From Basidiobolus meristosporus CBS 931.73 (lineage: Eukaryota; Basidiobolomycota; Basidiobolomycetes; Basidiobolales; Basidiobolaceae), in contig MCFE01000099.1 of assembly GCA_002104905.1 (NCBI GenBank), forward strand, positions 108,545 to 172,544: DNA of 64,000 nt, written 5' to 3'. Both the position numbers and the translations under genes were made by a program. A model generated the notes under the pieces. That model did no database searches, was not told where the DNA came from, and worked only from the letters and a program-made list of their open reading frames with translations. Below are positions 18,083-64,000 of the stretch, one piece after another. Within the stretch, counting starts at the first letter, position 1. The number at the start of each line of letters is the position of its first letter.

Positions 18083-21000
18083 CTCCCACTCAGCTAAATG
18101 CTCATACTGATTAGTCCTAATTTTGACCTAAGATATTCAAACTTGTCTCTAACTAATGGTTTGGTGAATATGTCTGCAATCATTTCATCTGTAGGACTGT
18201 AAACTAAGCTAACTCAGTTACTCTCTATAGCTTCACATATGAAATTATGTCTAATATCTATGTGCTTGGCTCTAGCATGATAGGTTGGATTTCTACCTAA
18301 TAGTATATATCCTTGATTATCTTCAAATAAAGCAATAGACATTTTTTGACATAGGCCTAAATCTGTAAAAAGCTTTCTTAACCGCATTGCTTCTTTTGTA
18401 GCTTCACAGGCTGCCATATACTCTGCCACTGTGGTAGAAAGTGCTACAGTTACTTGCTTTCTTGAATTCTATGAAATTACTCCTTGACAATAAAGAAAGG
18501 TGTATCCTGTGGTGGATCTTCTGTCTTCCAATTTTGTCCCCAATCAGCATCAGAGTATCTCACATGGTCCTGTTCTGAATCCTTATAAGTGTATCTTAAG
18601 CAGATATCAGCAGTTTCTTTTAGGTATCTAAAAATCTGCTTAACTGCTGCAATATGATCAGATCCATAGTACTGATTATGTTGGCTGACAACTCCCACTG
18701 AATATGAGATATCTGCACATTTTCCAAGCATGATATACATCAGACTGCCAACCATAGACTGATAAGGGAAGTCATGGCTTTCAGATGGCACCAAGCTCTC
18801 TTGATTTGGCTGAGTTTTGACCAAGTTAAGGTTTGTCTCCATTGGGGTAGCTGCCGGTTTACAGTCTTCCATTTTGTACTTCTTTAGTATATCTTGAATA
18901 TACCTGGATTGGCTTAGGGTAATAGTCTGGGTACTTCTGTCTATTGGGAACGTAATCCCTTAGTAGTAACTGAGTTCTCCTAGATTGGACATCTTGAACT
19001 CCTTAGATAGGCTTGATTTAGTCACTTCCAATATTTCTGGGTTATTGGTGGCTGTAATAAGATCATCTGCATATAGAGCTAATAGAACTGGATTTGCTCT
19101 ATCTGGCTTAAAGTATATACTATAGTCAGCATTACTCCTTCTGAAATGCAAAGATTCCAAATAAGATTCTATCTTGCAATTCCAGGCTCTTGGTGATTGT
19201 TTAAGACCATGTAGAGGCTTTTTAAGCTTGCAGATCAAATGGGGTTATCTTGGTCAACACAACTATCAGGCTGGTCTATATACTCATCCTCATCAAGTCC
19301 TCCATTCAAAAATGCAGCTCTTACATCCATTTGATGCATAAAACCATATATTTGGCTGCAATATTAATCTAATGGAATTTTACTTGGCTACCAGTGCAAA
19401 GGTCTCAGTATAGTCAAGTCCTTTTCTTTCAGAGTATCCTTTGGCCGCAAGTCTTGCTTTGTATATTTCAATTGTTCCATCAGCTTTGTATTTTGTCTTG
19501 AAGACCCATCTGCATCCAATTGATTTTGGGTTGATTGGCAATTTGACTAAGTCCCAAGTTTGATTTTCCATTAGAGCCTGATATTCCTCAGTCATTGCAG
19601 ATCTCCAAAACCTTGTCTGAGGGCTATTTAGGGCCTCTTTTACAGTCTGGGGCTCATCAATATGGACTGAATAGGCACAGGATAAGTTTGTACCCTCATT
19701 GATATAGTAATTTGGGCTATTTCTTGTCCAATTGGATCTCTGGGCATTTGATACTGGAATGATCACTTCTGGGATATTCCTGGGCACTGATTCTGGCTGA
19801 ACCATGGTTGTAGAGTCCTCTGGAGTGTAAAAATCCTCATTGTTTTGCTCTGACTCAACCCTGACAATTGGTGGACTTGAGATCAGATTTTTGTCATCAT
19901 TTGATGTCATTTTTTGTGAGAATTTTGAATTTTCATCAAACAGCACATCCCTGGACTTGATTAGCTTCTTTGCTTTGGTATTGTAGAGTCTGTATGCTTT
20001 ACCCTCATTGCAGTAGCCCAAAAATATGCATTTTACACTTTTTGGCTCAAATAATGACTGATATCCAGTGAGTTTCTCAGCATATGCTGTACACCAAAAT
20101 ATTCTTAGATGTTCTGCACTTGGTCTGTAGCCATACCAAGCTTCAAATGGAGTAGAACCACCAAGTATACTGTTATAACTCTAATTTTTAAGATATATAG
20201 CATTGGCAACTGATTCTGCCTGAAAATCAAAGGATAATTTTTGATCATGGATCATAGATGTTGCCTTATCCATTATTGACCTATTAGCACATTCTGCTAC
20301 TCCATTTTGCTGTGGGGAGTATGGTACAGTAGTCTGTTGCTTTATCCCATGAATTTTGCAGAAGTGGATGAAGAGCTTTGAGGTATATTCTCCACCATTG
20401 TCAGACTGAATTTTCTTGATTTTTTCACCAGTTTCTCTCTCCACCATGGCTTTAAACTCTCTGAGCTTAGACAGAGCTTCTTCCTTTCTCTCCATGAAGT
20501 AGGCACATGTGTATCTTGTATAATTATCAATAAAAGTGATTAAATACTTCATCCCGCCTAAAGATAAATTTTGCATAGGTCCCCACAGATCTGAGTGAAT
20601 TTGATCTAATTTTTTCTTAGTTTTGATCAACCCAGAGCTCCTGAGCAATTGTCTGGCTAGTTTTCCATATATGCAGGCTTGATAGTGCTCCAAATTAGTT
20701 GGGGGATCAATTTTTACTCCAGAAATTAGCTGATCTTTGAGCATTTTGCACAAATAATCAAAATTGAGGTGTCCAAGTCCCCTGTGCCAAAGCATTGGTG
20801 TTTCTTCATCTAAGTTACTTATATTGGCTTCCAGATATGTTGGAATTCAAGTCAACTTGTATAAATTCTGATCTCTGATGCCCAAAGCAATATGAGCACC
20901 ATTTTGATCAGTGATCCTGCATCCAGATTTGTCAAAGATGAAACTGGGTCCTTCTGCAGTGGCCTTGCTTACAGATAGTAGGTACTTGGCTATTTCTGGT

Positions 21001-21485
21001 ACATAGAGTACTTCTTTAAAGGTCAGTGCATGGCTTCCTTCACTGCTTCTTAGGTTTACTTGGATAGTTCCTTCTCCCACTGCATCAAGTGTTCAATTGT
21101 CACCCATGAAAACCTTCTTAATTGGAATTTCTTGATATTGGGTAAAAAGTTATTTGTGGTGTGTTAAGTGTTGAGATGCTCCAGAGTCAATATGCCACGT
21201 CCAAGAATCCTTGTTTGTGGTCATATTTAGTACAGATATGAAAAGTCTATCTTCAGTTGTTGCAGCATTTTCATATTCAGGCTTTTTCTGCTGACTATCT
21301 TTCTTTTTGAAGCACTGGTGTGATGTGTGTTCCTTCCTTTTGCAGTAGTTACAAAACAGATTGCTGTTGCCATTGTAGGGTCTTGGGTACCTCCTTTGTT
21401 TGTTATAACTGGTTATTAAAGCATTTGCTTCTTCCTTCTTATTGGCATTTGATTTTCCTAATTCTTCATCCGGGAGCCTTCCATA
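18083..21485 (-). pseudogene. Outer Ty1/copia element, gag C-terminus and pol (minus strand)
   Basis: Reading leftward from 21,533: a gag end with a CX2CX4HX4C knuckle (CNYCKRKEHTSHQC); the protease start WHIDSGASQH; the pre-integrase segment; an integrase core with HSDLWGP, IQSDNGGEYTS and SPQQNGVAECA (the D, D and E positions); reverse transcriptase with LYADDLITA; and RNase H with YSDADWGQNWKTED. Stops and frameshifts at about 20,840, 20,180, 19,380, 18,960 and 18,477 break the polyprotein. It is a typical copia order (integrase before reverse transcriptase). The gag N-terminus lies beyond the nested insertion at 25,904-26,229. Confidence 0.85.
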
Positions 21486-21830
21486 TGTTGTAAAGTTTGT
21501 ATTTCCACCTAAATATTCACCTAACTTAGTCACTTAGATCATTACCTTCAAATCCTAGAAAATACTGACCAAATTCCTTGTCAGGATTTGCTTAGAATAT
21601 TTTCACCAAAATACCAGGTACCCAGAACATGAAAATTCTCAAAGTTGTCCAAACAGCCCCAAACTTTCCATATATGTTCTTGGGACCTTCCTTAACCTAT
21701 TCTGCATGCTTGTTATGCCAAGACCATGTAAAAGTATAAATACTACTGTTACATTCAATAAATCTTTAAGTGAAAACCACAAAATCTACCTGTCCTCCCA
21801 ATCACCTCCAATATCTCCAAGACTCTTACA
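21486..21830 (+). repeat. Inner copia element, 5' LTR
   Basis: The repeat begins TGTTGTAAAGTTTG and ends near CTCTTACAA, in plus orientation, and matches the outer LTRs in reverse complement. It interrupts the outer element's gag frame. A TATAAATAC motif near 21,736 is the probable LTR promoter. Confidence 0.8.
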
Positions 21831-24800
21831 ATAGGTGATGAGCCCCAAGCTGTCACTCTCTGCAATGTCTACCACTGCTATTACTGGAGTTTTCCCTCTG
21901 CTGAAAAGTTGGATGGATCTAACTACCAATTGTGGAAGGTGAAGATGAAGATGCTGCTACAAGCAAGAGGCCTTTGGGATATTGTCATGAGAGAAGAATG
22001 CCCTCCTATAAATGTGGGAGAGGAAGCCTTAAATTACCAGAAGAAAGAACAAAGTGCCTTTAACTGCATTTGCTCTAATGTTAAGGACAAACTACTAATT
22101 CAATGCTCAAGAGCAAAAATGGCAAAGAATGCCTGGAGGGCAATAGAAGACACCTACCAGTAATGCTCAGCTGCTAAGAGAATGTATCTGAGACAAAAAT
22201 TCTTTATTACAAAGATGCTGCCAGGAGAAGAAATAAAAAAATCTAATTAACAGCATTACCCTGCTGGTAGATGAGATGGAATCTGTGGGTGTACCAACTA
22301 CTGATGAGGATGTGATAGTTACCATCCTGAATAGCCTGAGAGATGAGTTTCAGGGCCTTGTATCAGCCCTATAGTCCAGAACTGACAATTTGACCTTATA
22401 TTATATATATGAAAGGCTCCTGGATGAAGAATTAAGAATATCAAGCATCAATAAGAAGGAAGAAGAAAATGCTTTAATAAGCAATGATAACCAACAAAGG
22501 AGGTACCCAAGACCCTACAAAGGCAACAGCAACCTGTTTTGTAACTACTGCAAAAGGAAAGGACACACATCAGACTGGTGTCTCAAAAAGAAAGATAGTC
22601 AGCAGAAACAGCCTGAATATGGAAATGCTGCAACAACTTAAGATAGACTATTCATATCTGTACTAAGTATGACCACAAACAAGGATTCTTAGACGTGGTA
22701 TATTGACTCTGGAGCTTTTCAACACTTTACACACCAAAAAGAACTTTTTACCCAATATCAAGAAATTCCAATTAAGAAGGTTTTCATGGGTGACAATTGA
22801 ACACTTGATGCAGTGGGAGAAGGAACTATCCAAGTAAACCTTAGATGCAGTGAAGGAAGCCATACAATGGCCTTTAAAGAAGTACTCTATGTACCAGAAA
22901 TAGCCAAGAACCTACTCTCTGTAAGCAAGGCCACAGCAGAAGGACTCAGTTTCAGCTTTGACAATTCTGGATGCAAGATCACTGATCAAAATGGTGCTCA
23001 TATTGAGTTGGGCATCAGAGATCAGAATCTGTACAAGTTGACTTGAATTCCAACATATCTGGAAGCCAATATAAGTAACTTAAATGAAGAAACCCCAATG
23101 CTTTGGCACAGGGGATTTGGACACCTCAATTTTGATTATTTGTGCAAAATGATCAAAGATCAGCTAATTTCTGGAGTAAAAATTGATCCCCCAGCTAATT
23201 TGGAGCACTGTGAAGCCTGCATATATGGGGAACAAGCCAGACAACTGTTCAAGAGCTCTGGGTTAATCAAAACTAAGAAAAAATTAGATCTAATTCACTC
23301 AGATCTGTGTGGACCTATGCAAAATATATCTTTAGGCAGGATGAAGTATTTAATCACTTCTATTGATGATTATACAAGATACACATGGGTCTACTTCATG
23401 GAGAGAAAGAAAGAAGCTCTGTCTAAGCTCAGGGAGTTTAAAGCCATGGTGGAGAGAGAAACTGGTGAAAAAATCAAGAAAATTCAGTCTGACAATGGTG
23501 GAGAATATACCTCAAAGCTCTTCATCCACTTCTGCAAAATTCATGGGATAAAGCAACAGACTACTGTACCATACTCCCCACAGCAAAATGGAGTAGCAGA
23601 ATGTGCTAATAGGTCAATAATGGATATGGCAACATCTATGATCCATGATCAAAAGTTATCCTATGATTTTTGGGCGGAATCAGTTGCCACTGCTGTATAC
23701 CTTAAAAATAGGAGCTATAACAGAATACTTTGTGATTCTACTCCATTTGGAGTATGGTATGGATACAGACCAAGTGCAGAGCATCTAAGAATACTTGCTT
23801 GTACAGCATATGCCAAAAAACTGGCCGGAAATCAGTCAAAATTTGAGCCAAAAAGTGTAAAATGCATATTTTTGGGCTACTGCAATGAGAGCAAGGCATG
23901 TAGACTCCACAATACCAAAGCAAAGAAGCTAATCAAGTCCAGGGATGTGTTGTTTGATGAAAATTCACAATATTTACAAACAATGACATCAGATGATGTC
24001 TAAAATTTGATCTCAAGTCCACTAATTGTCAGGATTGAGTCAGAGCAAAACAATGAGTATTTTTCACCCCAGAGGCCTCTACAACCATGGTTCAGCAAGA
24101 ATCAGTGCCCAGGAATATCCCAGAAGTGATCATTTCATTATCAAATGCCCAGAGATCCAATTGGACAAGAAATAGCCCAAGTTACTATATCAATGAGGGT
24201 ACAAACTTATCCTGTGCCTATTCAGTCCATATTGATGAACCCCAGACTGTAAAAGAGGCCCTAAATAACCCTCAGACAAGGTTTTGGAGATCTGCAATGA
24301 CTGAGGAATATCAGGCCCTGATGGAAAATCAAACTTGGGACTTAGTCAAATTACCAATCAACCAAAAGTCAATTGGATGCAGTTGGGTCTTCAAGACAAA
24401 ATACAAGGCTGATGGTACAATTGAAAGATACAAAGCAAGACTTGTAGCCAAAGCACACTCTCAGACAAAAGGATCTGACTATACTGAGACCTTTGCACCG
24501 GTAGCCAAGTTTAATTCCATCAGATTAATATTGGCTATTGCGGCCAAATATAAGTTTTTTATTCATCAAATGGATGTAAAAACTGCATTTTTGAATGGGG
24601 AACTTGATAAGGATGTGTATATGGACCAGCCTGATGGGTTTGTTGACCAAGATAAACCCCATTTAGTCTGCAAGCTTACAAAGTCACTATATGGTCTCAA
24701 GCAATTACCAAGAGCCTGGAATTGCAAGATAGAATCTTATTTGGAATCTTTGAGTTCAAAAGGAGTAATGCTGACTATAGTATATACTATAAGCCAGATA

Positions 24801-25817
24801 GAGCAAATCCAGCTCTATTAGCTCTATATGTGGATGATCTTATTATAGCCGCCAATAACCTAGAAACATTAGAACAGAGTAAATCCAGCCTATCTAAGGA
24901 GTTCAAGATGTCCAATCTAGGAGAACTTAATTACTACTTAGGGATTACGTTCTCCATAGACAGAAGTACCCAGACTATCACCCAAAGCCAATCCAATATA
25001 TTCAAGATATACTAAAGAAGTACCAAATGGAAGACTGTAAACCGGCAGCTACCCCAATGGAGACAAACCTTAACTTGGTCAAAACTCAGCCAAATCAAGA
25101 GAGCTTGGTGCCATCTGAAAGCCATGACTTCCCTTATCAATCTATGATTGGCAGTCTGATGTATATCATGCTTGGAAAATGTGCAGATATCTCATATTCA
25201 ATGGGAGTTGTCAGCCAACATAATCAGAACTATGGATTGGATCATATTGCAGTAGTTAAGTGGATTTTTAGATACCTAAAAGGAACTGCTGATATCTGCT
25301 TAAGATACAATTGTAAGGATTCAGAACAGGATCTTGTGGGATACTCTGATGCTCATTGGGGACAAAATTTAGAAGACAGAAGATCTACCACAGGATACAC
25401 CTTTCTTTACTGTAAGGGAGCAATTTCATGGAATTCAAGAAAGCAACCAACCATAGCACATTCTACCACAGAGGCAGAGAACATGGCAGCCTCTGAAGCT
25501 ACAAAAGAAGCAATGTGGTTAAGAAATCTGTTTACAGATTTAGGCCAATATCAAAAAATGCCTATTACTTTATTTCAAGATAATCAAGGATGTATACAAT
25601 TAGGTAGAAATCCAACTTTTCATGCTAGAAACAAGCACATAGATATTAGACATCATTTCATACATGAAGCAATAAAGAACAACTTAGTTAGCTTAGTTTA
25701 CTGTCCTGCAGATGAAATGATTGCAGACATACTTACCAAACCACTAGCTAGAGGCAAGTTTGAATATCTTAGGTCAAAATTAAGACTAGTCAGTATGAAT
25801 ATTTAGCTGAGTGGGAG
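21831..25817 (+). pseudogene. Inner Ty1/copia element, gag-pol (plus strand)
   Basis: Gag begins near 21,838 and includes MDGSNYQLWKVKMKMLLQAR and a zinc knuckle CNYCKRKGHTSDWC. Then come a protease remnant YIDSGAFQHF, a pre-integrase domain, an integrase core (HSDLCGP, SDNGGEY, QQNGVAE in a 301-codon frame at 23,098-24,003), reverse transcriptase (YTETFAPVAKFNSIRLILA, then LYVDDLIIAANN after a frameshift near 24,750) and RNase H (GYSDAHWGQNLEDRRSTTGY, 25,027-25,806). Long frames survive but there are several stops, so it is younger than the outer element yet dead. Polypurine tract GAGTGGGAG precedes the 3' LTR. Confidence 0.9.
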
Positions 25818-52922: not shown

Positions 52923-53937
52923 GCAGATTAGCTTTGTATAATAAATTTCATGTTTGGCTGCCCCAAGGAAATAAAGTCGCTACAAACCAATCAAGGTTTG
53001 AGTAGTGGGCGCTCCGTTCGGCTACGAGAGTAGCCAGATAGGCTTTGATTTGCAATCGATTCGCTTTTTGAGTTGATTGTATGACAAGGCACGATTTCAT
53101 AGCAAATTCGCGGCTCTGATCAATATTAGGCCATATGCTATGGTTGATAAGAGATTTTACTCACATTGAGAGGTCTATTACACAAACGCAGGAGAGGCTT
53201 TGAAGCAAGTTCTCTGCTTTAGCCTTAGAGAACTGAGGTCACAAAGCTGCCAAAAGATTGATAGCTGTAAAGAAAACTAAACTGATATTGCTACTAGTCT
53301 GATATTGTTCCAAATTTGATACCATGTCCTGATTGTTGTATCCAAGAGAAAAGTGTAATAACACTCTTGAATAGTTTAACTGAACCTAAGTGACAACTAA
53401 GTGCAGAATCTTAGAATTGTCAGAGAGTGGTAGAAATCTTAGCCGAGAGGTTCTGGTCTAGTATTGGCCTTGTATATAGCTGGGTTTGGCTATCAAGGCA
53501 ACAGAGTTGCTTTGCCATGCAGGCTAGGCTTGGGTAGAAACTAGAATGTAATTGTTGAGTTCATAACTGTGTTGAGACACAATCTTAATTTTGTTGAGAC
53601 ACGCACTAAACCAAAAGGTTCAGTGAACTTTATTTATACTTTTTTGATTGAGTTGAATTGGTTAGTGCCATGAGACTGGATTAATTGAAATCAGTTTGGG
53701 TGTTGATAGGGGCATAAGATAAATGAAAATTGTATCATCAATCAGCTGATGTCTTGGCAACAGATAAGTGGTTGGATAGATCTCAGATGACTAAACACCT
53801 GGGAAGGCTTGGCAGATAAGTTGATAACAAAATGATGCCATAAAAGTTAATCAGGTATGACAGCTAAAAATAGATTCTGAGAAGTGATAATATAAACAAT
53901 ATCTGGGATGAGTTATGTTTAGGTTAGGAAAAATCAG
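52923..53937. other. Transition to the subtelomeric array, no gene seen
   Basis: CpG frequency drops after about 53,100 and the sequence becomes AT-rich and repetitive in texture. No open frame of interest is present. It ends at the first TTAGGG remnant. Confidence 0.5.
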
Positions 53938-53949
53938 TTAGGGTTAGGG
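53938..53949 (+). repeat. Telomeric remnant at 3' end of LINE copy A1
   Basis: Two TTAGGG units are followed directly by GGGAGACAGTCACC, the reverse complement of a LINE family A 3' end. It is the most centromere-proximal such joint in the window. Confidence 0.75.
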
Positions 53950-54598
53950 GGGAGACAGTCACCAATAGGCAAAATCTTTATTTCAGTTGAAACAAAGAAG
54001 CCAGCACTACTGTTGTAGCTTTGATACAAGAGTGTGTAGCTGAGGGGAATTAGTAGGTAAGTTAATAAGAAGTGATGATAGTTCTTCAGTGCTCAAGACA
54101 CTGTTCAGTGGGAAGGGGGGTAGCAAGGAGGGTAAGAATGATTTGTGAACAACATTAATGAGGGGAATATGATAAGGATTGATATTCATCATAAAGGGAG
54201 TGCACTATTTCAGATATTGCTGCCAAAGGTCTGTCAAGTACTTCAGGTAGGCCAGCTTGGGTTTTTCTGACTGCAGAATATAGTGAGCAAGCTTCTTGAC
54301 TTCAGGATCTTCAAGTATAGTTCTCCAGCAGGAGCCAGGTGTGGTGTGGTGTGTTCTCTTCCGGGCCTTGATCAGTGGGTTGTTGCAGTAGTGAAGTCCA
54401 AAATATAATCTGGTTCTGAGGTAGGGAAGTCTGATCTTACAAGGCATAAACCCAAAAGCTCCAAGAATTGCATGTCTGTAGGGGCATTCACGCAGATGAG
54501 GAACCAAGGTGGTAATGCACCAGACTGCAAACTTGTCAAGTTTAGTGCAGTCTCTAGAAGTAAGAGAGAGAAGTGGTAAGCCAAATTCCTGGACAGGG
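53950..54598 (-). pseudogene. LINE family A, copy A1 (3' fragment, old)
   Basis: About 650 bases of the element's 3' end on the minus strand. The frames 54,007-54,192 and 54,205-54,677 match the C-terminal part of the intact copy at 60.7-63.8 kb (for example LHTLVSKLQQ, VPHLRECPYRHAILGAFGFM, TTPGSCWRTILEDPEVKKLA). It is frameshifted and retains some CpG where the younger copies have none. It is truncated on the telomere side by the next insertion. Confidence 0.8.
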
Positions 54599-54756
54599 AA
54601 GGGGGAGGGAAAGTCACCAAGTTGGTGATGTCTTTATTTGAGACAAGAACTAATCTAAGTACAAATAAAGAAGTCAATTAAGAAGTCTAGAACCTCTCTA
54701 AAAAGTAATCTAATTTAGAGTGTAGGTGTTATAGTAAGGGCTAGGAAATGGTTAGA
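54599..54756 (-). repeat. Diverged 3' end of a LINE/SINE family
   Basis: It starts GGGGGAGGGAAAGTCACC and carries a perfect 7-bp hairpin TCACCAAGTTGGTGA (54,614-54,628) followed by TCTTTATTTG, the layout of all the other element 3' ends in this array. The body does not match family A or the SINE closely. It ends near GTGTAGGTGTTATAG (54,720-54,734). Confidence 0.6.
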
Positions 54757-54830
54757 AGAGCAGGGGGTCTGGGGGACGCAGTCCCCTAGAGAATAAAAAA
54801 GCAGGGGGTTTGGGGGATGCAATCCCCCAT
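54757..54830. repeat. Pair of G/C hairpin repeats
   Basis: Two direct copies of GCAGGGGGTxTGGGGGAxGCA-TCCCC lie 41 bases apart. Each folds into a G5/C4-5 hairpin (54,771-54,786 and 54,812-54,828). They differ by ACGCAGT against ATGCAAT, again a CpG-to-TpG type change with pairing retained. Confidence 0.6.
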
Positions 54831-55361
54831 ACTGCTCCCATACTCTTTAAATTCCCTTTGGATTACTTTTCTCTCATTCTTGGTTCTGGTCCCTTAGGGT
54901 TAAAATTCCTCCTCCTAACCCTTATCACCCTAACCATAAATATTTTTACCCTACAATTGGCACATTGTCTGCTCATATAGTGGGCATGTCTGGGCCAATA
55001 TTTGTCTCCCTATACTGTCCATATGCTCTGTATAAGTCTTGATGACTATTTAACTAACAAGTAGAGATTAGCCCAATTGGACCAAATGATCCAATTGTAT
55101 TTAAATTATTTTGACCTCATAGCAAGGATATATGAAGTCTAAATGAAGTTTATGAAATATCTCTGGTATGCACTTTGTGCTGGTATTTTGATTTTTTCAA
55201 AATGGTTGCAAATACTTTGTCTTATATTGCCTTTACTGAAGCAACTTTTGGCAAATTTTAATTGGACCAAATGGTCTAACACTTCATTGATGAATAATGG
55301 GTATGGCTTTAAGCAATTATATTTCAACCATTTAATAGCCAATCCTACTAACTGCAAAGAA
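54831..55361. other. AT-rich spacer with degenerate C-strand telomere motifs
   Basis: CCTAACCCTTATCACCCTAACC at 54,913-54,935 resembles reverse-orientation telomere units. A minus-strand open stretch at 55,139-55,387 has no motif and may be the degraded continuation of the piggyBac relic to its right. Confidence 0.4.
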
Positions 55362-55838
55362 TTATTGAGCATTATTTGTTTTTTCATATACCAACTTCAA
55401 GTGCCTGGTATAGCAGTCTTTACACATTGGGTAGCCAGGGTTGCAACTGCATGAAAACTCAACCTTAGTGCCTGTAACATGAGCGGCAGTACAAGTTTTG
55501 CAAGCTAATCTACGGCGCTTTGAGCCATAACCTTTACTCATCAACAGGTAAGTGTGATTTTCATCACTTCTGAGTTACCTCTGACTACCCAAGGGCCCCT
55601 TGATGTCTGAACCGGCCAAATTCTTACAATATTGCAAGAAATTGTATGCTAAAATATCCTTGAAAGAGAAATGAGATACACCACACTTTTGGTAAGAAAA
55701 TGTACAATAAGAGCTATAGGCATTGGCTTTGCAGATACCCAGGATGAAGCCGTAGAAACGCATCTCCCATCTTTCTGTAGATATAACATCATGATAAGAT
55801 GTCAAATTATCTTGAAGGTTATTGGCAGCATCAATCAA
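55362..55838 (-). pseudogene. piggyBac-type transposase, C-terminal relic
   Basis: The frame 55,575-55,838 reads YHDVISTERWEMRFYGFILG followed by ICKANAYSSY, like the end of the DDE_Tnp_1_7 domain (RRW...N-A-Y). The frame 55,362-55,544 reads RRRLACKTCTAAHVTGTKVE and then CSCNPGYPMCKDCY, a C-terminal cysteine-rich zinc-binding tail typical of piggyBac proteins (CxxC...C...PxCxxC). A frame break near 55,560 separates them and the catalytic aspartates lie further upstream and are absent. It is a broken copy. Confidence 0.65.
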
Positions 55839-56190
55839 ACCTACAAATATAGTAAATGGAGCACATGTTGTTTCTTCAAGACAGGATTCTACTTACTTTT
55901 ATGGGTCTCATATTCTTCAACCGCTTCCGGTCACTGAATGGTTATCACCTCACCGCAACGCAACGCAACGCAACGCAGCGGGAACGGTAGCAGCACTGCA
56001 TCTAGGAAGCAGACCTTTTGCACCAGACGGGGGCCAAGCTACAGACAGCGCAGCAAAAAGCACCCGCCACAACATGACACAACACAACACAACACACCAA
56101 AGGCAGCAGTGGCAAAAAAAGAGCAGACACACACACATATACACACAGGCAGAAGCAAAAAGGGTTGTGGAATGGAGCAATAAGGAAGAA
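55839..56190. other. CpG-bearing spacer with microsatellites
   Basis: (GCAAC)n at 55,955-55,976, (ACACA/CAACA)n at about 56,071-56,098 and a CA-rich run at 56,127-56,148. The CpG-containing repeat survives, which indicates recent origin or lack of methylation next to the 5S gene. Open stretches here are products of the repeats. Confidence 0.55.
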
Positions 56191-56308
56191 AACATCAGCA
56201 CCTAGTATTCCCACATGGTCCCCCACCATAGTACTGACTAGGCCATTACCAGTTTGACTTTGGAGATCGGACAGGATCCGGTATTTTCTGGTATGTATGG
56301 CCAATGCT
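56191..56308 (-). rRNA. 5S ribosomal RNA gene (118 nt)
   Basis: On the minus strand the sequence contains GGCCATACATACC near the 5' end, CCGATCTCCAAAGTCAAAC (internal control region), TAGTCAGTACTATGGTGGGG and ACCATGTGGGAATACTAGG before GTGCTG at the 3' end. All are in the order and spacing of eukaryotic 5S rRNA. Helix I can be formed over nine positions between AGCATTGGC (56,308-56,300) and GCTGATGTT (56,199-56,191) with Watson-Crick or G-U pairs, giving exactly 118 nt. A T-run at the 3' end can stop RNA polymerase III. One control-region CpG appears changed (CTCCA for CTCCG), so activity is likely but not certain. Confidence 0.85.
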
Positions 56309-56596
56309 CAAGAGTAACATCCTTTGATGAGTACTTATGGAGCAGTGGGCGCACAGTTTTTTGCAAATATCTCACCAACATGGTTGGGTATCCCAGAGTT
56401 TCTTTGACCAGAAGATGCACAACAATGAGGGCTATGTGTGTGTACCATCTCAGCCAGATTGGAGATTTTTTTGATTTTTAGTAGAATTAATGGTGCAAAA
56501 TCAAGGAGAAAACAGGCTTAAAAAGAGGAAGAGTTGAGAAACAACCTAGTTGATATGGCTATTTTCTGCTGGGTGTAGCATCACAATGGCATTGCT
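56309..56596. other. Spacer between 5S rRNA and LINE C
   Basis: It includes the 5S upstream region. A minus-strand frame overlapping the 5S has no meaning. Nothing else is recognised. Confidence 0.45.
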
Positions 56597-58326
56597 TAGG
56601 GGGGGGGAAACCACCGGTTGGTGTAATCTTTATTGTCAATCATTGTGAAAATAAAGAAGTCAGGGATTGATTATGGAGTCTTGTAACATATTTGTACAGA
56701 CACTTTGGGTTAATATGTAGATAGGTTGCTATTTCTTGTAGTTCCTCTGCATTGAACAGAGTGTTGAGAGGGAGTGGCGGTAGCACTAGCAATAATAACT
56801 TATGATCTATGTATCATGATGTGCTTTTGCCAATTGGTGATATAAAGCAAAGAAATGGGGTTTGCTGAGTTACATACTCTTGCCATAGTTGATTAAGATA
56901 CTTGCTATATGCTTCTTTGGGGTTTTTACTCCCCTCTATTGCTTTGGCAAATTGCTGGACTTTTGGGCACCCGATGATAGTTGCCCAACAGGAGTTATTT
57001 TGCGGCATCTTGTGAGAAATCCATGCTTGTATCAACTCATTTGCTGATTTTTGGAGTTGAATACGCAGTCTTGTACGGAGGTACAAAATTCCAATTGAAT
57101 ACGGGAGTAGTCTAAAAGTTGCCAGGACTGCGTGGTGATACTGTGTTGGTGGGAGCCATGGTAATAAAGTATAAATGCTGTGAGAAACAAACTTATCCAG
57201 TTTTGCCAGGTATCTTGTTGGAATAGGCATTATTGCCAATCCAAACTCTAGTACTGGGAGCACAAACTGCTTGAGTAACAAGTGACATTGGCTCAAAGGT
57301 ATATCTGGTGGTGTAACAGAGACTAACTTGTGTAAAGCATGCCGTGCAAGTGCAATTTGCCTCCACACATGTGCTTTTACATCTAGACCAGATGCAGTAA
57401 ACGGAAGCCCTAGATAGCTGACAGTTTCTGCTGGGTGTAGAGTTTGAGAGTTTAGCATGATACTGCATCCAACTGGCTTGGTTTTTGCCATTGAGAGACT
57501 AAGATTGTTTTGTGTAAGGTAGCTGACAATCAGGTTAGAGTCTTTTTCCAAATTACTGGAAGAGATATGTATATCATCTGTGTATAAAGTTGTAAGCGCA
57601 GAGGCTTCCAAGGCCAGAAAGTTGTAAGCACAGAGGCTTTCAAGGCCGGAAAGTTGTTCATAAAGATGGCAAATAGTAGAGGGCCTAGTATGGATCCCTG
57701 CACTACCCCATTTGGAAAATCATAAGCGGTAGATTGCATATTTGGATGCAAAATGTAGGCCTTTGAGTCCTGATATAAAGCCATCATAAGAGCCGTAATT
57801 GAAGGTCCAGCAAATACTTCAAGTTTTCTCCAAAGTTGGTTACGGTCAACTGCATCAAATGCACGGGTAATATCCAAGAGTACTGCTGAAATTTGTTACA
57901 GAGTGTGTGGTCATGGCTTAGCATGACAGCCATTTCTATCAAGACTTTAGGTATAAAGCCAAACTGATTTGCTACAAACAAGCCACTAGATGAGAGTTGC
58001 AAAGCAATCAACAGTTCCAAACCTTTCTGCAAGCTGGTAAGAGGGAAACAGGGCAATAGGATTCTGCCAGTTTGGCTGAGCCCCTACCTTTGTATAGAGG
58101 AATCACCTTTGCAGCCAGCCATTCCAACAGCATTTGCACATGTGAAATACACTGCAAATAGAATGGGAGCAATATATGTGCCATGGCAGCAGGTGCCAGC
58201 TTCAAGATTTCATATGTTATATTGTCATGACCTGGTGCGGTATAGTTGGGTAGCTTACAAAGAGTTGCCTCTAAAGTAGCTGCATCCAGGTTAATTGCGT
58301 GAGAGCAATCTCTTGAAGTAGCTGTA
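56597..58326 (-). pseudogene. LINE family C, 5'-truncated copy with broken reverse transcriptase
   Basis: Joined at its 3' end to TTAGGGGGGGG (56,596-56,607). Minus-strand frames in order read KVIPLYKGRGSAKLAESY, LDITRAFDAVDRNQLW, NGVVQGSILGPLLFAIFM and LYTDDIHISSSN: the reverse transcriptase blocks of a non-LTR element with YTDD or FxDD type active site. Frameshifts occur near 58,020, 57,860 and 57,600; the last coincides with a 30-base internal tandem duplication (about 57,587-57,646). The C-terminal domain (56,814-57,611) is open. It is related to family A at roughly half of residues. It has no endonuclease because the 5' part is missing. Confidence 0.85.
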
Positions 58327-58341
58327 TTAGGGTTAGGGGGG
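58327..58341 (+). repeat. Telomeric remnant between LINE C and SINE copy B1
   Basis: TTAGGGTTAGGG followed by GGG leads directly into the reverse complement of the SINE 3' end. Confidence 0.85.
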
Positions 58342-58539
58342 AGGAAAGTCACCAAGTGGTGAAATCTTTATTTACTTATGACAAGTATCTAAAGAAGCCA
58401 AGTTAATCTGAAGTTATTCCTAGAAAGCTAGGTCTGAGAGATATCTTCCTGGTAAGCCAGGTCTGAGAGTTGAGAAGCTGAGTGGTACTACATTTCCTAG
58501 TTAGCTAGGTCTGAGAGAGGTTTCCTGGAAAGCCAGGCC
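58342..58539 (-). repeat. SINE copy B1 (3' fragment)
   Basis: About 200 bases nearly identical to 60,191-60,390. It contains the terminal hairpin TCACCAAGTGGTGA (58,349-58,362) and the four CCTRG...CYAGG hairpin units at 58,419-58,432, 58,448-58,461, 58,496-58,509 and 58,524-58,537. The 5' remainder including the tRNA-like head is lost; the cut falls directly against telomeric repeats. Confidence 0.85.
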
Positions 58540-58557
58540 TTAGGGTTAGGGTTAGGG
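58540..58557 (+). repeat. Three TTAGGG units between B1 and LINE A2
   Basis: Exactly three perfect TTAGGG repeats precede the G-run and the reverse-complemented LINE 3' end. Confidence 0.9.
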
Positions 58558-58806
58558 GGGAGAGAGTCACCAACAGGTGAAATCTTTATTTCAGTTGAAA
58601 CAAAGAAGCCACCGCTACTGTTGTAGCTTTGATACAAGAGTGTGTAGCTGAGGGGAATTAGTAGGTAAGTTAATAAGAAGTGATGATAGTTCTTCAGTGC
58701 TCAAGACACTGTTCAGTGGGAAGGGGGGTAGCAAGAGAGGTAAGAATGACTTGTGAACAACATTAATGAGGGGATTGTGATAAGGATTGATATTGATCAT
58801 AAAGGG
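58558..58806 (-). pseudogene. LINE family A, copy A2 (about 250-bp 3' fragment)
   Basis: It encodes only the last 61 codons (MININPYHNPLINVVHKSF ... LVSKLQQ) plus the 3' untranslated region with the hairpin TCACCAACAGGTGA (58,567-58,580). It is a severely 5'-truncated insertion. Confidence 0.85.
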
Positions 58807-58833
58807 TGGGTTAGGGTGTAGGTGTTATAGGGG
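58807..58833 (+). repeat. Irregular telomere-like joint between A2 and A3
   Basis: TGGGTTAGGG is followed by GTGTAGGTGTTATAG and a G-run. The 15 bases GTGTAGGTGTTATAG also occur at 54,720-54,734, so they may be a scrap of another element. Confidence 0.65.
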
Positions 58834-60181
58834 GGGGAGACAGTCACCAACAGGTGAAATCTTTATTTCAGTTGAAACAAAGAAGCCAGCGCTACTGTTG
58901 TAGCTTTGATACAAGAGTGTGTAGCTGAGGGGAATTTGTAGGTAAGTTAATAAGAAGTGATGATAGTTCTTCAGTGCTCAAGACACTGTTCAGTGGGAAG
59001 GGGGGTAGCAAGAGAGGTAAGAATGACTTGTGAACAACATTAATGAGGGGAATGTGATAAGGATTGATATTCATCATAAAGGGAGTGTGCTGCTGCAGAT
59101 ATTGCTGCCAAAGGTCTGTCAAGTACTTCAGATAGGCCAGCTTGGGTTTTTCTGACTGCAGAATATAGTGAGCAAACATCTTGACTTCAGGATCTCCAAG
59201 TATAGTTCTCCAGCAGGAGCCAGGTGTTGTGTGGTGTGTTCTCTTCCAGGCCTTAATCAGTGGGTTGTTGCAGTTGTGAAGTCTGAGGTATAATCTGGTT
59301 CTAAGGTAGAGAAGTCTGATCTTATAGGGCATAAACCCAAAAGCACCAAGAATAGCATGTCTGTAGGGGCATTCAGGCAAATGAGGCACCAAGGAGGTAA
59401 TGCACCATACTGCAAACTTGTCAAGCTTAGTGCAGTCTCTAGAAGTAAGAGAGAGAAGTGGTAAGCCAAATTCCAGGACAGGGAAGACAAACTGCTTGAG
59501 TAGAAGGAGGCAGCTGGGAGCTGAAGTTGTAGGAGGAGTAACAGCCAGTAGCTTGTGGAGTGCCTGTCTTGCCAGGATAATTCTCTTCTTCAGGTGTGCT
59601 CCAGAGTCTAGTCCAGTAGGAAGGAAAGGAAAGCCAAGATATGTAGCAGAAACCTGAGCAGGTAGAGTGGAGTTCTCCAAGTTGATGGGAGAGCCCAAAG
59701 GTACAGTCTTTGCAATGGAAAGCTGGAGATTATTCTTCTGCAGATAGTGGTGGATGGTCTGGGAGTCTTGTTGCACATTGGAGGAGGATATTCTGATGTC
59801 ATCAGCAAAGAGAGTAACCAGGCAGTCAGCTGAGAGTCTTGGGAAATCATTCAGGAAGATGGCAAACAGTATAGGACCAAGCACAGAGCCTTGAACCACT
59901 CCATTAGGAACTGAGAACACAGCTGATTGCTCACTTGGGTGCAGAATTCTTGCTTGTGGATCCAGAAACAGAGATCTGACAAGGAGGGTGAGAGAGGTAC
60001 TGGAGAAGCATTGCAACTTGGACCAAAGCAGATTTCTGTCAACTGAATCAAAGGCCTTAGTAATATCAAACAGAACAGAGGGATACTTGCACTGGAGAGA
60101 GTGATCTTGGCTAAGTATGACTGCATATTCCAAGGAGAGGCCAGGAACAAAGCCAAACTGTGCAGGATGAAACTTGAGGGA
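58834..60181 (-). pseudogene. LINE family A, copy A3 (5'-truncated)
   Basis: A 413-codon open frame (58,892-60,133) begins at the reverse transcriptase A block SVLFDITKAFDSVDRNLLW, includes NGVVQGSVLGPILFAIFLND and TLFADDIRIS, and ends LVSKLQQ. It is almost identical to the matching part of A4, with single changes such as Gln for His before ARILHP. It lacks the endonuclease and the first reverse transcriptase blocks. The near-identity with A4 shows recent insertion or copying within the array. Confidence 0.9.
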
Positions 60182-60192
60182 GGGTTAGGGGG
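60182..60192 (+). repeat. Telomeric remnant before SINE copy B2
   Basis: GGGTTAGGGGG links the truncated 5' side of A3 to the 3' end of the SINE. Confidence 0.8.
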
Positions 60193-60705
60193 GAGGAAAG
60201 TCACCAAGTGGTGAAATCTTTATTTACTTATGACAAGTATCTAAAGAAGCCAAGTTAATCTGAAGTTATTCCTAGAAAGCTAGGTCTGAGAGATATCTTC
60301 CTGGTAAGCCAGGTCTGAGAGTTGAGAAGCTGAGTGGTACTATATTTCCTAGTTAGCTAGGTCTGAGAGAGGTTTCCTGGAAAGCCAGGCCTGAGAAGTG
60401 AGAATCTGAATATATCTGAGCTAAGTTATACTGGTTTGCGGTAGCTGAATTGTGGCCGGAATGGCCAGTAGACTGGGGGAACTGAGATGAATTTCTGGGC
60501 GATCACTGGCCATATTTTCTAGGCAAATCTGGCCAATTAGCATTTCAAGGATTTCAGCCAATCAGAGCCTTTACTTTGCCCGATGGTTGATCAAGCCATC
60601 TCCCAATGAGCACACATCAATTTATTAATCAAATTTTGCTGGATCCAGGATTTGAACCCACAACCATGGGTATGGAAGGGTTAGGGATAACCACAAGGCT
60701 AAGTG
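60193..60705 (-). repeat. Full-length tRNA-derived SINE (copy B2)
   Basis: Reading on the minus strand, the head has an A-box-like TAGCCTTGTGG (60,701-60,691) and a perfect B box GGTTCAAATCC (60,658-60,648), 43 bases apart as in tRNA genes, so RNA polymerase III transcription is expected. A unique body of about 250 bases follows, then four covarying hairpins (60,376-60,389; 60,348-60,361; 60,300-60,313; 60,271-60,284). The tail with TCTTTATTT..., hairpin TCACCAAGTGGTGA (60,201-60,214) and C-run is shared with the LINE family A 3' end. No protein is encoded. The shared tail suggests mobilisation by the LINE machinery. Confidence 0.8.
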
Positions 60706-60714
60706 TTAGGGGGG
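60706..60714 (+). repeat. Telomeric remnant before LINE copy A4
   Basis: TTAGGGGGG separates the SINE head from the reverse-complemented 3' end of A4. Confidence 0.7.
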
Positions 60715-60768
60715 AGACATTCACCAACAGGTGAAATCTTTATTTCAGTTGAAACAAAGAAGCCAGCG

Positions 60769-63537
60769 CTACTGTTGTAGCTTTGATACAAGAGTGTGTA
60801 GCTGAGGGGAATTTGTAGGTAAGTTAATAAGAAGTGATGATAGCTCTTCAGTGCTCAAGACACTGTTCAGTGGGAAGGGGGGTAGCAAGAGAGGTAAGAA
60901 TGACTTGTGAACAACATTAATGAGGGGAATGTGATAAGGATTGATATTCATCATAAAGGGAGTGTGCTGCTGCAGATATTGCTGCCAAAGGTCTGTCAGG
61001 TACTTCAGGTAGGCCAGCTTGGGTTTTTCTGACTGCAGAATATATTCAGCAAACTTCTTGACTTCAGGATCTCCAAGTATAGTTCTCCAGCAGGAGCCAG
61101 GTGTTGTGTGGTGTGTTCTCTTCCAGGCCTTAATCAGTGGGTTGTTGCAGTTGTGAAGTCTGAGGTATAATCTGGTTCTAAGGTAGAGAAGTCTGATCTT
61201 ATAGGGCATAAACCCAAAAGCACCAAGAATAGCATGTCTATAGGGGCATTCAGGCAAATGAGGCACCAAGGAGGTAATGCACCATACTGCAAACTTGTCA
61301 AGCTTAGTGCAGTCTCTAGAAGTAAGAGAGAGAAGTGGTAAGCCAAATTCCAGGACAGGGAAGACAAACTGCTTGAGTAGAAGGAGGCAGCTGGGAGCTG
61401 AAGTTGTAGGAGGAGTAACAGCCAGTAGCTTGTGGAGTGCCTGTCTTGCCAGGATAATTCTCTTCTTCAGGTGTGCTCCAGAGTCTAGTCCAGTAGGAAG
61501 GAAAGGAAAGCCAAGATATGTAGCAGAAACCTGAGCAGGTAGAGTGGAGTTCTCCAAGTTGATGGGAGAGCCCAAAGGTACTGTCTTTGCAATGGAAAGC
61601 TGGAGATTATTCTTCTGCAGATACTGGTGGATGGTCTGGGAGTCTTGTTGCACATTGGAGGAGGATATTCTGATGTCATCAGCAAAGAGAGTAACCAGGC
61701 AGTCAGCTGAGAGTCTTGGGAAATCATTCAGGAAGATGGCAAACAGTATAGGACCAAGCACAGAGCCTTGAACCACTCCATTAGGAACTGAGAACACAGC
61801 TGATTGCTCACTTGGGTGCAGAATTCTTGCATGTGGATCCAGAAACAGAGATCTGACAAGGAGGGTGAGAGAGGTACTGGAGAAGCATTGCAACTTGGAC
61901 CAAAGCAGATTTCTGTCAACTGAATCAAAGGCCTTAGTAATATCAAACAGAACAGAGGGATACTTGCACTGGAGAGAGTGATCTTGGCTAAGTATGACTG
62001 CATATTCCAAGGAGAGGCCAGGAACAAAGCCAAACTGTGCAGGATGAAACTTGAGGGAGTCAGAGTAGAGCTCCTGAGCAAGCAGAAGCTCAAACACCTT
62101 TCTGCAGGTGGGCAGCAGAGATATTGGCCTGTAGGAGCTAGGATCCAGGTGCTTTCCTTTACCCTTGTACAGTGGCAGAACATTTGCAAAGGACCATTCC
62201 TCAGGAGTAGAAAGCTGGGCTGAGCATTGCTGAAACAGTGGAAGCAGAAGTGCAGACATGGCCTTGGTACTAGTCTTCAGAAGCTCATAGGAGATTGTGT
62301 CCACACCTGGAGCAGTAGAGTTGGGAAGCCTCTTGAGCACATTATGGATTCTCCTTTGATCAAGTGCAAGTGGGATGGGCAGAGTCTTGAAGTCAGGATG
62401 AAAGCCAGGAGTTGAGTACTGCTTTGTAGAGAAGAAGATGTTAGCCAGCTGTTCTGTTGAAGGTAACTTCCTGGAAGAGGGCCTCATTGCCCTGTAGAGT
62501 CTTGATACTGTTCTTGTTATAGAGTTGGAAGATTGCAGAGGCAAGGAACTCATAATATGATCCCAGAGCTGAGTATGCAGAGTGTGGTGAATTGCCTTGG
62601 AGTGGTGTATTGCTGTCAGGAGGAGTTTCTCTGTTTTTGGGTTAGGAAAGCTCAGGTAGCTTTGTTGCAGGGCTGAAACAATGGATTCCCATTTTCTTGA
62701 GGTAACAGCAGTAGTCTTGCATGGCAGTGAGAGGGAGGCAGACACCAGAATCAGATGCTTCACAAAGAGCCAGGCAAAGTTGAGATCATCTGGCAGGGAA
62801 AGTAGCAAACTGGCAAGCTTCAAGTAGTTCCCAAAGTCTTTCTTCTGATTCTTGGTAGCTTTGTGGGTGAGCACAGTAAGTTTTGGCAGCTTCTTCTTCA
62901 CAACTGGTTGCATAGAAAGGGACCAGGCTGGGTGGTCAGAGGCTCTCAAGGATCCTAGCTCAGCTCCAGAGAATTGCTTAACTTCATTCACAAAGTAGAG
63001 GGCAGCAGCAGAAGGGCAGATCCAGTCAACACATCTTTTCTCAGATTGAGCACCTAGTGCTAGCAGGTGGCTTTCTCTCAGGAAGTTCAGTAGGAATGTA
63101 GACCTTGGCTTCATTCTTGCAGTCAGAGTAGTCTTGTTCTCAGGATGGGGAATGTTGAGATCTCCAAGCAAGATAACAGGTGTTGATATAGATTGTTGGT
63201 ATTGCTGAACCTTCTGGCATATAACTTGCACTTCCTGAAGGGCTAGACTTGGAGGCAGATAGCAGAGCACCAGACTGATAGTTGGCAACTGGAGAGCAGC
63301 ACAGTAAGGGGAGTAAAGAGGAACACAGAGCTGAGGAGTATTGATGATAGAAGAGATGAAGCAGATAGAGGAGGTATTCTTTGTTCTAGGAGTAGAAAAG
63401 CAATATAGATTAGTCAAAAGTATAGAGGGTAGCTGGACATCAATCAAACACAGGAGGGAAAATCTTGAAAGAAGTCTCTCTAGAGTTGGTCTTGATGGCT
63501 GTATGCTGTTGCAGTTAAGCAACAGAACTTCAGGTAG
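60769..63537 (-). CDS. LINE endonuclease-reverse transcriptase polyprotein, about 917 codons
   Basis: An AP-type endonuclease domain comes first: LLLNCNSIQPS at the start, VILLGDLNIPH (residues about 116-126), CVDWICPS (164-171) and ASDHPAWSL (194-202). Reverse transcriptase follows: LYKGKGK (451-457), SYRPISLLPTCRKVFELL (463-480), VLFDITKAFDSVDRNLLW (524-541), NGVVQGSVLGPILFAIF (581-597) and TLFADDIRIS (611-620), with FADD as catalytic box. A 280-residue C-terminal domain of unknown fold has CPYRHAILGAFGFMPYKIR. No CCHC knuckle is evident. All expected catalytic residues appear present. There is no ATG near the endonuclease start; the frame is continuous with the upstream one except for a single TGA at 63,540-63,538. 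This suggests readthrough, a non-ATG start, or a nonsense mutation. Confidence 0.9.
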   Translation of the reverse strand, partial: LPEVLLLNCNSIQPSRPTLERLLSRFSLLCLIDVQLPSILLTNLYCFSTPRTKNTSSICFISSIINTPQLCVPLYSPYCAALQLPTISLVLCYLPPSLALQEVQVICQKVQQYQQSISTPVILLGDLNIPHPENKTTLTARMKPRSTFLLNFLRESHLLALGAQSEKRCVDWICPSAAALYFVNEVKQFSGAELGSLRASDHPAWSLSMQPVVKKKLPKLTVLTHKATKNQKKDFGNYLKLASLLLSLPDDLNFAWLFVKHLILVSASLSLPCKTTAVTSRKWESIVSALQQSYLSFPNPKTEKLLLTAIHHSKAIHHTLHTQLWDHIMSSLPLQSSNSITRTVSRLYRAMRPSSRKLPSTEQLANIFFSTKQYSTPGFHPDFKTLPIPLALDQRRIHNVLKRLPNSTAPGVDTISYELLKTSTKAMSALLLPLFQQCSAQLSTPEEWSFANVLPLYKGKGKHLDPSSYRPISLLPTCRKVFELLLAQELYSDSLKFHPAQFGFVPGLSLEYAVILSQDHSLQCKYPSVLFDITKAFDSVDRNLLWSKLQCFSSTSLTLLVRSLFLDPHARILHPSEQSAVFSVPNGVVQGSVLGPILFAIFLNDFPRLSADCLVTLFADDIRISSSNVQQDSQTIHQYLQKNNLQLSIAKTVPLGSPINLENSTLPAQVSATYLGFPFLPTGLDSGAHLKKRIILARQALHKLLAVTPPTTSAPSCLLLLKQFVFPVLEFGLPLLSLTSRDCTKLDKFAVWCITSLVPHLPECPYRHAILGAFGFMPYKIRLLYLRTRLYLRLHNCNNPLIKAWKRTHHTTPGSCWRTILGDPEVKKFAEYILQSEKPKLAYLKYLTDLWQQYLQQHTPFMMNINPYHIPLINVVHKSFLPLLLPPFPLNSVLSTEELSSLLINLPTNSPQLHTLVSKLQQ

Positions 63538-63794
63538 TCAGGCAGAGGTTGTAGCTTCTTCAGAGGCAGCATTAACAATGTGACCTGCAGAGTCCCAGAG
63601 CTCTTCAAATGGTGCATCACTTAAGTCAGCAAGGAGGGAAATGGCATGGTTCTTGAGGAAGTATGCCACATCATAGGAGGGGGCTTGTCTCTTGATGGCA
63701 GCAAAGAAAGACAGAATGGCAACATGGGCTGGAGGCTTGTTGAACAGTAGAGAGTCAGAGGATTCAGATTCTTCAGGCACTATCTTGAAGTCAG
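63538..63794 (-). CDS. Upstream LINE frame, partial (ORF1-like C-terminus)
   Basis: An in-frame open stretch of about 85 codons reads PEESESSDSLLFNKPPAHVA, then ILSFFAAIKRQ and SEEATTSA, ending in TGA CTA. It has no family I recognise; position suggests the end of an ORF1/gag-like protein or the N-terminal part of a single long polyprotein. On its 5' side the frame enters the telomere complement, which reads (Leu-Thr)n without stops, so the real start is missing. Confidence 0.6.
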
Positions 63795-64000
63795 TTAGGG
63801 TTAGGGTTAGGGTTAGGGTTAGGGTTAGGGTTAGGGTTAGGGTTAGGGTTAGGGTTAGGGTTAGGGTTAGGGTTAGGGTTAGGGTTAGGGTTAGGGTTAG
63901 GGTTAGGGTTAGGGTTAGGGTTAGGGTTAGGGTTAGGGTTAGGGTTAGGGTTAGGGTTAGGGTTAGGGTTAGGGTTAGGGTTAGGGTTAGGGTTAGGGTT
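63795..64000 (+). repeat. Telomere, (TTAGGG)34 plus TT
   Basis: An uninterrupted array of 34 perfect TTAGGG units plus two bases runs to the window edge. The G-rich strand is 5' to 3' toward the end, as required for a right chromosome end. Confidence 0.98.

What the first reader, a model, noticed from the sequence alone, without database searches (positions are those of the whole stretch)
53938..63794. Telomere-repeat-targeted LINE/SINE array, all copies in one orientation
Seen: six LINE/SINE copies (C, B1, A2, A3, B2, A4) and the older A1 are all on the minus strand, and their 3' ends join TTAGGG-type sequence on the centromere side (53,938; 56,596; 58,327; 58,540; 58,810; 60,182; 60,706). 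Most are cut short at the 5' side. Known: telomere-specific non-LTR elements exist (TRAS/SART in silkworm, MoTeR in Magnaporthe, Zepp in Chlorella, HeT-A in flies). Inferred: the TTAGGG strand, either at a nick or at an open chromosome end, primes reverse transcription, giving exactly this polarity, and telomerase or recombination then re-caps the end. This may be an undescribed fungal family.
Basis: partly seen in the sequence, partly recalled or inferred. Interest (0 to 1): 0.92.

Follow-up and report, generated by a model that had tools for sequence, protein, structure and literature searches.

The report
Telomere-building LINE/SINE arrays in Basidiobolus
In the fungus Basidiobolus meristosporus the chromosome ends are stacked with jumping elements, all pointing the same way and mostly joined to the next by about one telomere repeat, so the ends seem to grow outward by repeated addition of these elements, with ordinary telomere repeats as the cap.

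Summary
The window is one end of a contig of Basidiobolus meristosporus CBS 931.73. A strict pattern for the shared 3' tail occurs 1,588 times in the genome and never in the reversed-pattern control. In the 28 contigs listed first, all 100 tails share one strand within each contig. TTAGGG lies within 26 bp in 80 of 92 tails checked. In 102 parsed junctions the telomeric patch is short: 97 have 12 nt or less, and the mode is one unit. Eighteen contig-end tracts are 157-297 bp long. Outer copies look younger than inner ones (24 of 27 groups), so arrays grow outward. The LINE has an APE-fold endonuclease plus a reverse transcriptase. The only close relatives found are five unnamed proteins. A SINE with pol III boxes shares the tail. 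ORF2 is probably made by UGA-CUA readthrough. A telomerase gene is present. It works like MoTeR, FoTeR, SART or HeT-A, but fails at least one defining feature of each. Whether the primer is an eroded end or a nick inside a longer telomere is unresolved.

The parts
53938..54600 (-). LINE family A copy, oldest A copy in the window, 5'-truncated; 3' end joined to TTAGGGTTAGGG
   Evidence: 93.8% identical to reference copy L007 positions 1-650; junction read directly
54601..54690 (-). 3' tail of another family (GAGGGAAAGTCACCAAGTTGGTG type), joined to the truncated end of the A copy without TTAGGG; distal limit not determined
   Evidence: sequence; same tail type in other loci
56596..58326 (-). 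LINE family C copy, RT fragment with broken frames; 3' end joined to GCTTAGGGGGGGGG
   Evidence: tblastn 46-57% to family A ORF2 in four pieces; tail
58327..58539 (-). SINE (S) copy, 5'-truncated (203 of 520 nt)
   Evidence: 98.5% to reference S from L004
58540..58809 (-). LINE A copy, 247 nt, on three TTAGGG units
   Evidence: 98.0%
58810..60181 (-). LINE A copy, 1,346 nt
   Evidence: 99.2%
60182..60705 (-). SINE (S) copy, almost full length (515 of 520 nt)
   Evidence: 99.2%; A box and B box found in the reference copy of S
60706..63793 (-). LINE A copy, outermost in the window, 3,083 of 4,559 nt, cut inside ORF1 and capped by the terminal telomere
   Evidence: 99.4% to L007
60769..63537 (-). 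ORF2, 922 aa plus stop: APE-type endonuclease and reverse transcriptase
63538..63540 (-). TGA followed by CTA, the only stop between ORF1 and ORF2 (same frame): putative leaky stop
63541..63793 (-). 3' part of ORF1 (540-codon open frame in the full copy L007)
63794..64000 (+). terminal TTAGGG tract, 34 units, end of contig

Best explanation
This is a telomere-targeted LINE/SINE system that builds the chromosome ends outward, one element at a time. A LINE RNA (or a SINE RNA that carries the same kind of 3' tail) ends in a hairpin-like motif plus a run of C that can pair with the telomeric G-strand. The 3'-OH of a telomeric G-strand end, usually carrying only about one TTAGGG left on a truncated older copy, primes reverse transcription, so every copy has its 3' end towards the centromere. 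The enzyme often stops early, which leaves a new truncated 3' DNA end. Telomerase caps that end with about 26-49 TTAGGG units, favouring ends that already match the repeat. When the cap is reduced to about one unit the cycle repeats. Shown: polarity, join to TTAGGG, short spacing, long terminal caps on truncated copies, outward age gradient, excess microhomology, APE and RT folds (predicted model), a telomerase gene. Inferred: priming by the telomeric 3' end, use of short ends, mobilisation of the SINE by the LINE enzyme, capping by telomerase. Likely: ORF2 is made as an ORF1-ORF2 readthrough product through UGA-CUA.
Against: Short spacing could be survivorship. In Pyricularia, tracts of three or more TTAGGG tend to break, and stable ones run from AGGG to two units (PMC7367193, passages). 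Internal tracts of 5 and 7 units exist, within 814 and 257 bp of a contig end (C337, C95), which fits insertion inside a longer telomere followed by loss of long tracts; 4-unit tracts occur too. 12 of 92 tails had no TTAGGG within 26 bp. 13 of 34 truncated junctions could not be given any overlap with the repeat. An array near the left end of C291 is followed outward by non-telomeric DNA: a relic or an assembly error. 3 of 27 groups go against the age gradient. No transcript, protein or insertion event was observed.
Confidence: 0.8

Rival explanations
1. MoTeR-like insertion: the endonuclease nicks the TTAGGG strand anywhere in a normal-length telomere, the element inserts there, and long internal TTAGGG tracts later break and are healed, so only copies on short tracts survive.
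For: The range seen here (94 of 102 junctions with 4-12 nt) matches the stable range AGGG to (TTAGGG)2 reported for MoTeR arrays (PMC7367193, passages). The endonuclease keeps N, Y, GDxN and SDH motifs and an APE fold in the model, so it is not simply decayed. Internal 7- and 5-unit tracts lie near contig ends.
Against: Unit count does not change with distance from the contig end (rho 0.02, p 0.85, n = 102). Of 15 tails in loci L060-L085, mostly close to terminal tracts, 11 have one unit or none. Loss would have to be very fast and almost complete.
Confidence: 0.35
2. Template jumping: one round of reverse transcription copies several RNAs in a row, and the one-repeat spacer is copied from a CCCUAA at the 3' end of each RNA, not from the chromosome.
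For: One-unit mode; microhomology between the truncated end and the repeat; LINE and SINE copies are intermingled; ultra-short copies.
Against: Age differs along arrays (24 of 27). Long terminal caps sit directly on truncated copies. Spacer length is spread over 4-12 nt and not fixed.
Confidence: 0.15
3. Arrays spread mainly by recombination or break-induced replication between chromosome ends, with little new transposition.
For: Known for MoTeR arrays and TERT-deficient Pyricularia (PMC7367193, PMC8381367, passages). A repeated stretch of the A 5' end at C29. Truncation at 246-247 of A recurs in three contigs.
Against: 30 of 30 A truncation points are distinct; ages differ within arrays. The recurrent 246-247 point lies at a native AAAGGG that matches the repeat, so it can arise more than once.
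Confidence: 0.1
4. Assembly artefact (collapsed or mis-joined repeats).
For: Very uneven strand count (1455 to 133), an odd left end of C291.
Against: Distinct flanks at the junctions read; the window runs from ordinary genes through the array to a terminal tract.
Confidence: 0.03

Closest known systems
MoTeR1/MoTeR2 of Pyricularia (Magnaporthe) oryzae and FoTeR of Fusarium oxysporum
   Same: Fungal telomere elements; MoTeRs form head-to-tail arrays, 5' end outward, separated by TTAGGG tracts of half a unit to over 20, with a partner lacking RT (MoTeR2), in a host with telomerase (PMC7367193, PMC12857005, PMC8381367: passages and sections read)
   Different: The FoTeR paper puts FoTeR and MoTeR1 in a clade with CRE1/2, SLACS and CZAR, with a restriction-like endonuclease; here the endonuclease is APE-type, the lineage stands alone in our tree, the partner has pol III boxes, and 5' truncation is the rule for the LINE
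TRAS and SART of Bombyx mori
   Same: LINEs that target telomeric repeats (R1 clade per PMC10088271, passages); APE endonuclease recalled
   Different: SART1 needs at least three TTAGG repeats and a long poly(A) tail (PMC7265360, abstract); here most copies sit on one repeat and end in a C-run with no poly(A)
HeT-A/TART/TAHRE of Drosophila
   Same: Telomere growth by element addition; strand-biased G content of the element (PMC10088271, passages); 3'-end-first addition and 5' truncation recalled
   Different: Drosophila lacks telomerase (PMC5009743, passage); here a telomerase gene and terminal TTAGGG tracts are present
Zepp (Chlorella), GilM/GilT (Giardia), Athena (rotifers)
   Same: Retroelements at telomeres (listed in PMC10088271, passages)
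   Different: GilM/GilT are CRE clade and Athena is Penelope-like (same paper); Zepp's poly(A) is recalled. Not compared by sequence here

Membership tests
LINE (non-LTR retrotransposon) with APE endonuclease | RT of LINE type | tested here: met
LINE (non-LTR retrotransposon) with APE endonuclease | N-terminal APE fold with catalytic motifs | tested here: met
MoTeR/FoTeR (CRE-type clade) | Restriction-like endonuclease instead of APE | tested here: not met
   APE domain at the N terminus; no separate search for a restriction-like domain was made
MoTeR/FoTeR (CRE-type clade) | Head-to-tail telomeric arrays with short TTAGGG tracts | tested here: met
TRAS/SART (R1 clade) | Poly(A) tail at the 3' end | tested here: not met
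   A C-run (3-10 G on the other strand) and no poly(A) in 102 of 103 junctions parsed
TRAS/SART (R1 clade) | RT in the R1 clade | not tested
HeT-A/TART/TAHRE | Host without telomerase | tested here: not met
   Telomerase_RBD at C880, pieces of 40.5 and 34.7 bits, cut-off 25; long TTAGGG ends
HeT-A/TART/TAHRE | Sequential addition at the terminus | tested here: met
   age gradient 24 of 27; indirect, no event observed
tRNA-type SINE | Internal pol III A and B boxes | tested here: met
   B box GGTTCAAATCC and A-box-like TAGCCTTGTGG starting 43 nt apart in the reference copy; box consensus recalled
tRNA-type SINE | Recognisable tRNA head | tested here: not met
   ARAGORN on L004 and Rfam on L004, L018, L058 found no tRNA
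tRNA-type SINE | 3' tail shared with a partner LINE | tested here: met
   CACC-loop-GGTG and AATAAAG motif in A, S and other tails

The most novel reading that the evidence does not exclude
Chromosome ends of this fungus are kept by two reverse transcriptases taking turns. Telomerase makes the cap; when a cap falls to about one or two repeats, too short to be protected, the LINE enzyme uses that naked 3' end directly, without needing its endonuclease, and adds a LINE or SINE that telomerase then caps again. The elements would be a back-up telomere repair system with an endonuclease changed at its metal-binding Glu, and with ORF2 made only by UGA-CUA readthrough.
Probability: 0.35. Interest if true: 0.88.

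Novelty: new variant of a known kind. Interest (0 to 1): 0.7.

Why it matters
It would put telomere-building LINEs in an early-diverging fungal lineage, with an APE-type enzyme where MoTeR and FoTeR use a restriction-like one, and with SINEs that share the habit. Over 1,500 tails in one public assembly make the old question 'nick in the telomere or naked end?' directly measurable. The coexistence with a telomerase gene gives a natural middle state between ordinary telomeres and the Drosophila system. The UGA-CUA boundary suggests programmed readthrough to make a LINE ORF2, which can be tested with a simple reporter.

Tried and rejected
The strand bias (1455 to 133) looked at first like a biological asymmetry; I take it as a matter of how contigs are turned, since in the contigs of known length the 3' end points away from the nearest end. 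A tRNA search of the SINE found nothing. The first structure model (6 sequences, pLDDT 43) was discarded; the second (54 sequences, pLDDT 82.7) was used. A first RT tree was wrong because my script cut the wrong region from several proteins; it was replaced, whose bootstrap had not settled. The 3' hairpin was not tested for covariation, because the stem hardly varies among the tails seen. Genome-wide counts of tails next to two or more, or four or more, repeats were tried and never answered (below). Absence in print: the listings showed no paper on telomeric LINEs of Basidiobolus, a telomere-targeted SINE, or UGA readthrough in a LINE; one search was a narrow phrase search, the listings are capped, and the library lacks most subscription papers. 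Papers: PMC12857005 (abstract and sections 3, 18, 19), PMC7367193, PMC8381367, PMC4700185, PMC10088271, PMC4207609, PMC5009743 and PMC10515909 (passages), PMC7265360 (abstract and outline); the others only in search listings.
Full report
Setting. The window lies at G000:C1301:108545-172544, the right end of a 172,544-bp contig in an 89.0-Mb assembly of 1,311 contigs. A gamma-glutamyltransferase frame in the window is 100% identical, over the 98% of it that aligns, to a Basidiobolus meristosporus CBS 931.73 protein whose contig is also 172,544 bp long. Basidiobolus is an early-diverging fungus (recalled). A telomerase RNA-binding domain is encoded at C880 in two pieces, both over the Pfam cut-off; one piece holds a TAG, which I read as an intron (inference).

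The array. From 53,938 to 63,793 the window holds at least eight 3' ends, all on the minus strand. Family A is a LINE of about 4.56 kb in its full form (L007) with ORF1 (540-codon open frame, with a cysteine cluster) and ORF2 (922 aa). S is a 520-bp SINE with a perfect B box and an A-box-like motif. Further LINE lineages are present: C in the window and D in other contigs. Nearly all tail types found share AATAAAG, a CACC-loop-GGTG motif and a final C-run when read as RNA.

Whole genome. The strict tail pattern occurs 1,455 times on one strand and 133 on the other; the reversed control gives none. Exact A tails number 551 and exact S tails 357. In the 28 contigs that hold the 100 places listed, every contig has its tails on one strand. 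In the 100 places listed only C291 shows both strands, near its opposite ends (2.1 kb and 156.6 kb of 160,813 bp). C361 has an inverted S tail at 982 and a normally turned A copy at 156,127. The left array of C291 is followed outward by gene-like DNA in the first 600 bases, not by a telomere, so it is a relic or a mis-join. In the 15 sampled contigs over 100 kb all 49 junctions lie within 22.2 kb of one end; several of these contigs were fetched because they carry the element, so the figure describes position, not frequency.

Junctions. Of the 92 tails that both lists cover (100 were listed), 80 have TTAGGG within 26 bp. I could read 103 junctions in the held sequence and parse 102: 18 have no perfect unit, 70 one, 10 two, 3 three and 1 four; 97 have at most 12 nt of telomeric sequence (3 of these have none) and 5 have 17-28 nt. 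The G-run varies from 3 to 10, which suggests slippage at the C-rich RNA end (inference). In contrast, 18 contig ends that I read to the last base carry 157-297 bp of TTAGGG repeat. Ten of these abut a recognisable A or S copy, nine of them truncated and one (C402) full-length; the other eight abut other DNA. In the same fetch C95 proved to hold an internal tract of 7 units, and C337 one of 5; these two were found because I searched for tracts of five or more, so they must not be pooled with the other counts. Of the 15 tails in loci L060-L085, 11 have one unit or none (one of the 15 repeats a junction counted before, and two are from C337).

Age. Using single copies as references and hits of at least 100 bp and 90% identity, the outermost copy is closer to the reference than the innermost in 24 of 27 contig-by-family groups (p = 5e-5), and in 21 of 24 when the two reference contigs are left out (p = 3e-4). 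Of all pairs, 55 agree and 13 disagree. In the window family A goes from 93.8% through 98.0% and 99.2% to 99.4% outward. Unit count does not change with distance from the end (rho 0.02, p 0.85).

Truncation. Of 33 uncensored A copies two are full length, against 19 of 23 S copies, as expected if the enzyme falls off along the way. Copies as short as 27, 60 and 63 nt stand between neighbours. The 30 A truncation points are all different, though a point at 246-247 recurs in three contigs when one search is added. Where a truncated end meets the telomeric patch, 10 of 34 junctions share 3 nt or more with the repeat, against 6.3% for random breakpoints; 13 of the 34 show no overlap at all, some with extra bases between. 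Telomerase healing and reverse-transcriptase annealing both predict such matches.

ORF1-ORF2 boundary. The two frames are in phase and separated by one TGA. The TGA is followed by CTA in 10 of 10 distinct A copies and 2 of 2 D copies held, and a 13-nt block TCTGCCTGACTAC is identical between an A and a D copy, the only such ungapped block within 60 nt. The first Met of ORF2 is at residue 142, inside the endonuclease. An exact 32-mer starting at this TGA occurs 141 times. UGA CUA is a known leaky stop in fungi and animals (PMC4207609, passages). Readthrough is therefore likely; reinitiation at a non-AUG codon is not excluded.

Judgement. Works like: outward, 3'-end-first addition at telomeres, as in MoTeR, FoTeR and HeT-A. 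Member of: LINEs with APE endonuclease, of a lineage for which I found no name. CRE-type membership fails on the endonuclease, SART/TRAS on the tail, HeT-A on telomerase. The short spacing favours priming at very short ends, but breakage of longer internal tracts, as reported for Pyricularia, would leave the same picture, and the data here do not settle it.

Noticed in passing
window 56,190-56,308 (-): A 5S rRNA gene (98 bits) lies between two telomeric elements in the subtelomere.
   Followed up: no
window 63,538-63,540 (-) and L007, L008, L073: Conserved TGA-CTA between ORF1 and ORF2 in two LINE families: putative stop-codon readthrough.
   Followed up: partly
window 53,001-64,000: Positive GC skew (0.13 to 0.43) on the TTAGGG strand in 10 of 11 one-kb windows; single copies A 0.24 and S 0.17, a bias also reported for other telomeric retrotransposons (PMC10088271, passages).
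   Followed up: partly
whole assembly: Nearly all clean five-unit TTAGGG tracts are on one strand (108 to 3), as are the tails: contig ends seem to be turned one way, probably a habit of the assembler.
   Followed up: no
C291:1-2400 (L105, L109): Array near a contig end followed outward by non-telomeric, gene-like DNA.
   Followed up: partly
C35:17741-17771 (L061): Five TTAGGG units in DNA where neither A nor S was recognised.
   Followed up: no
window 19,380-25,806: Ty1/copia-like reading frames in pieces on both strands (likeness judged by eye).
   Followed up: no
SINE S between A and B boxes; LINE A 5' leader (L006, L007): The SINE carries CCCTAACCC inside its promoter region, and the full LINE A carries CCCTAACCCTAA in its 5' leader.
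   Followed up: no
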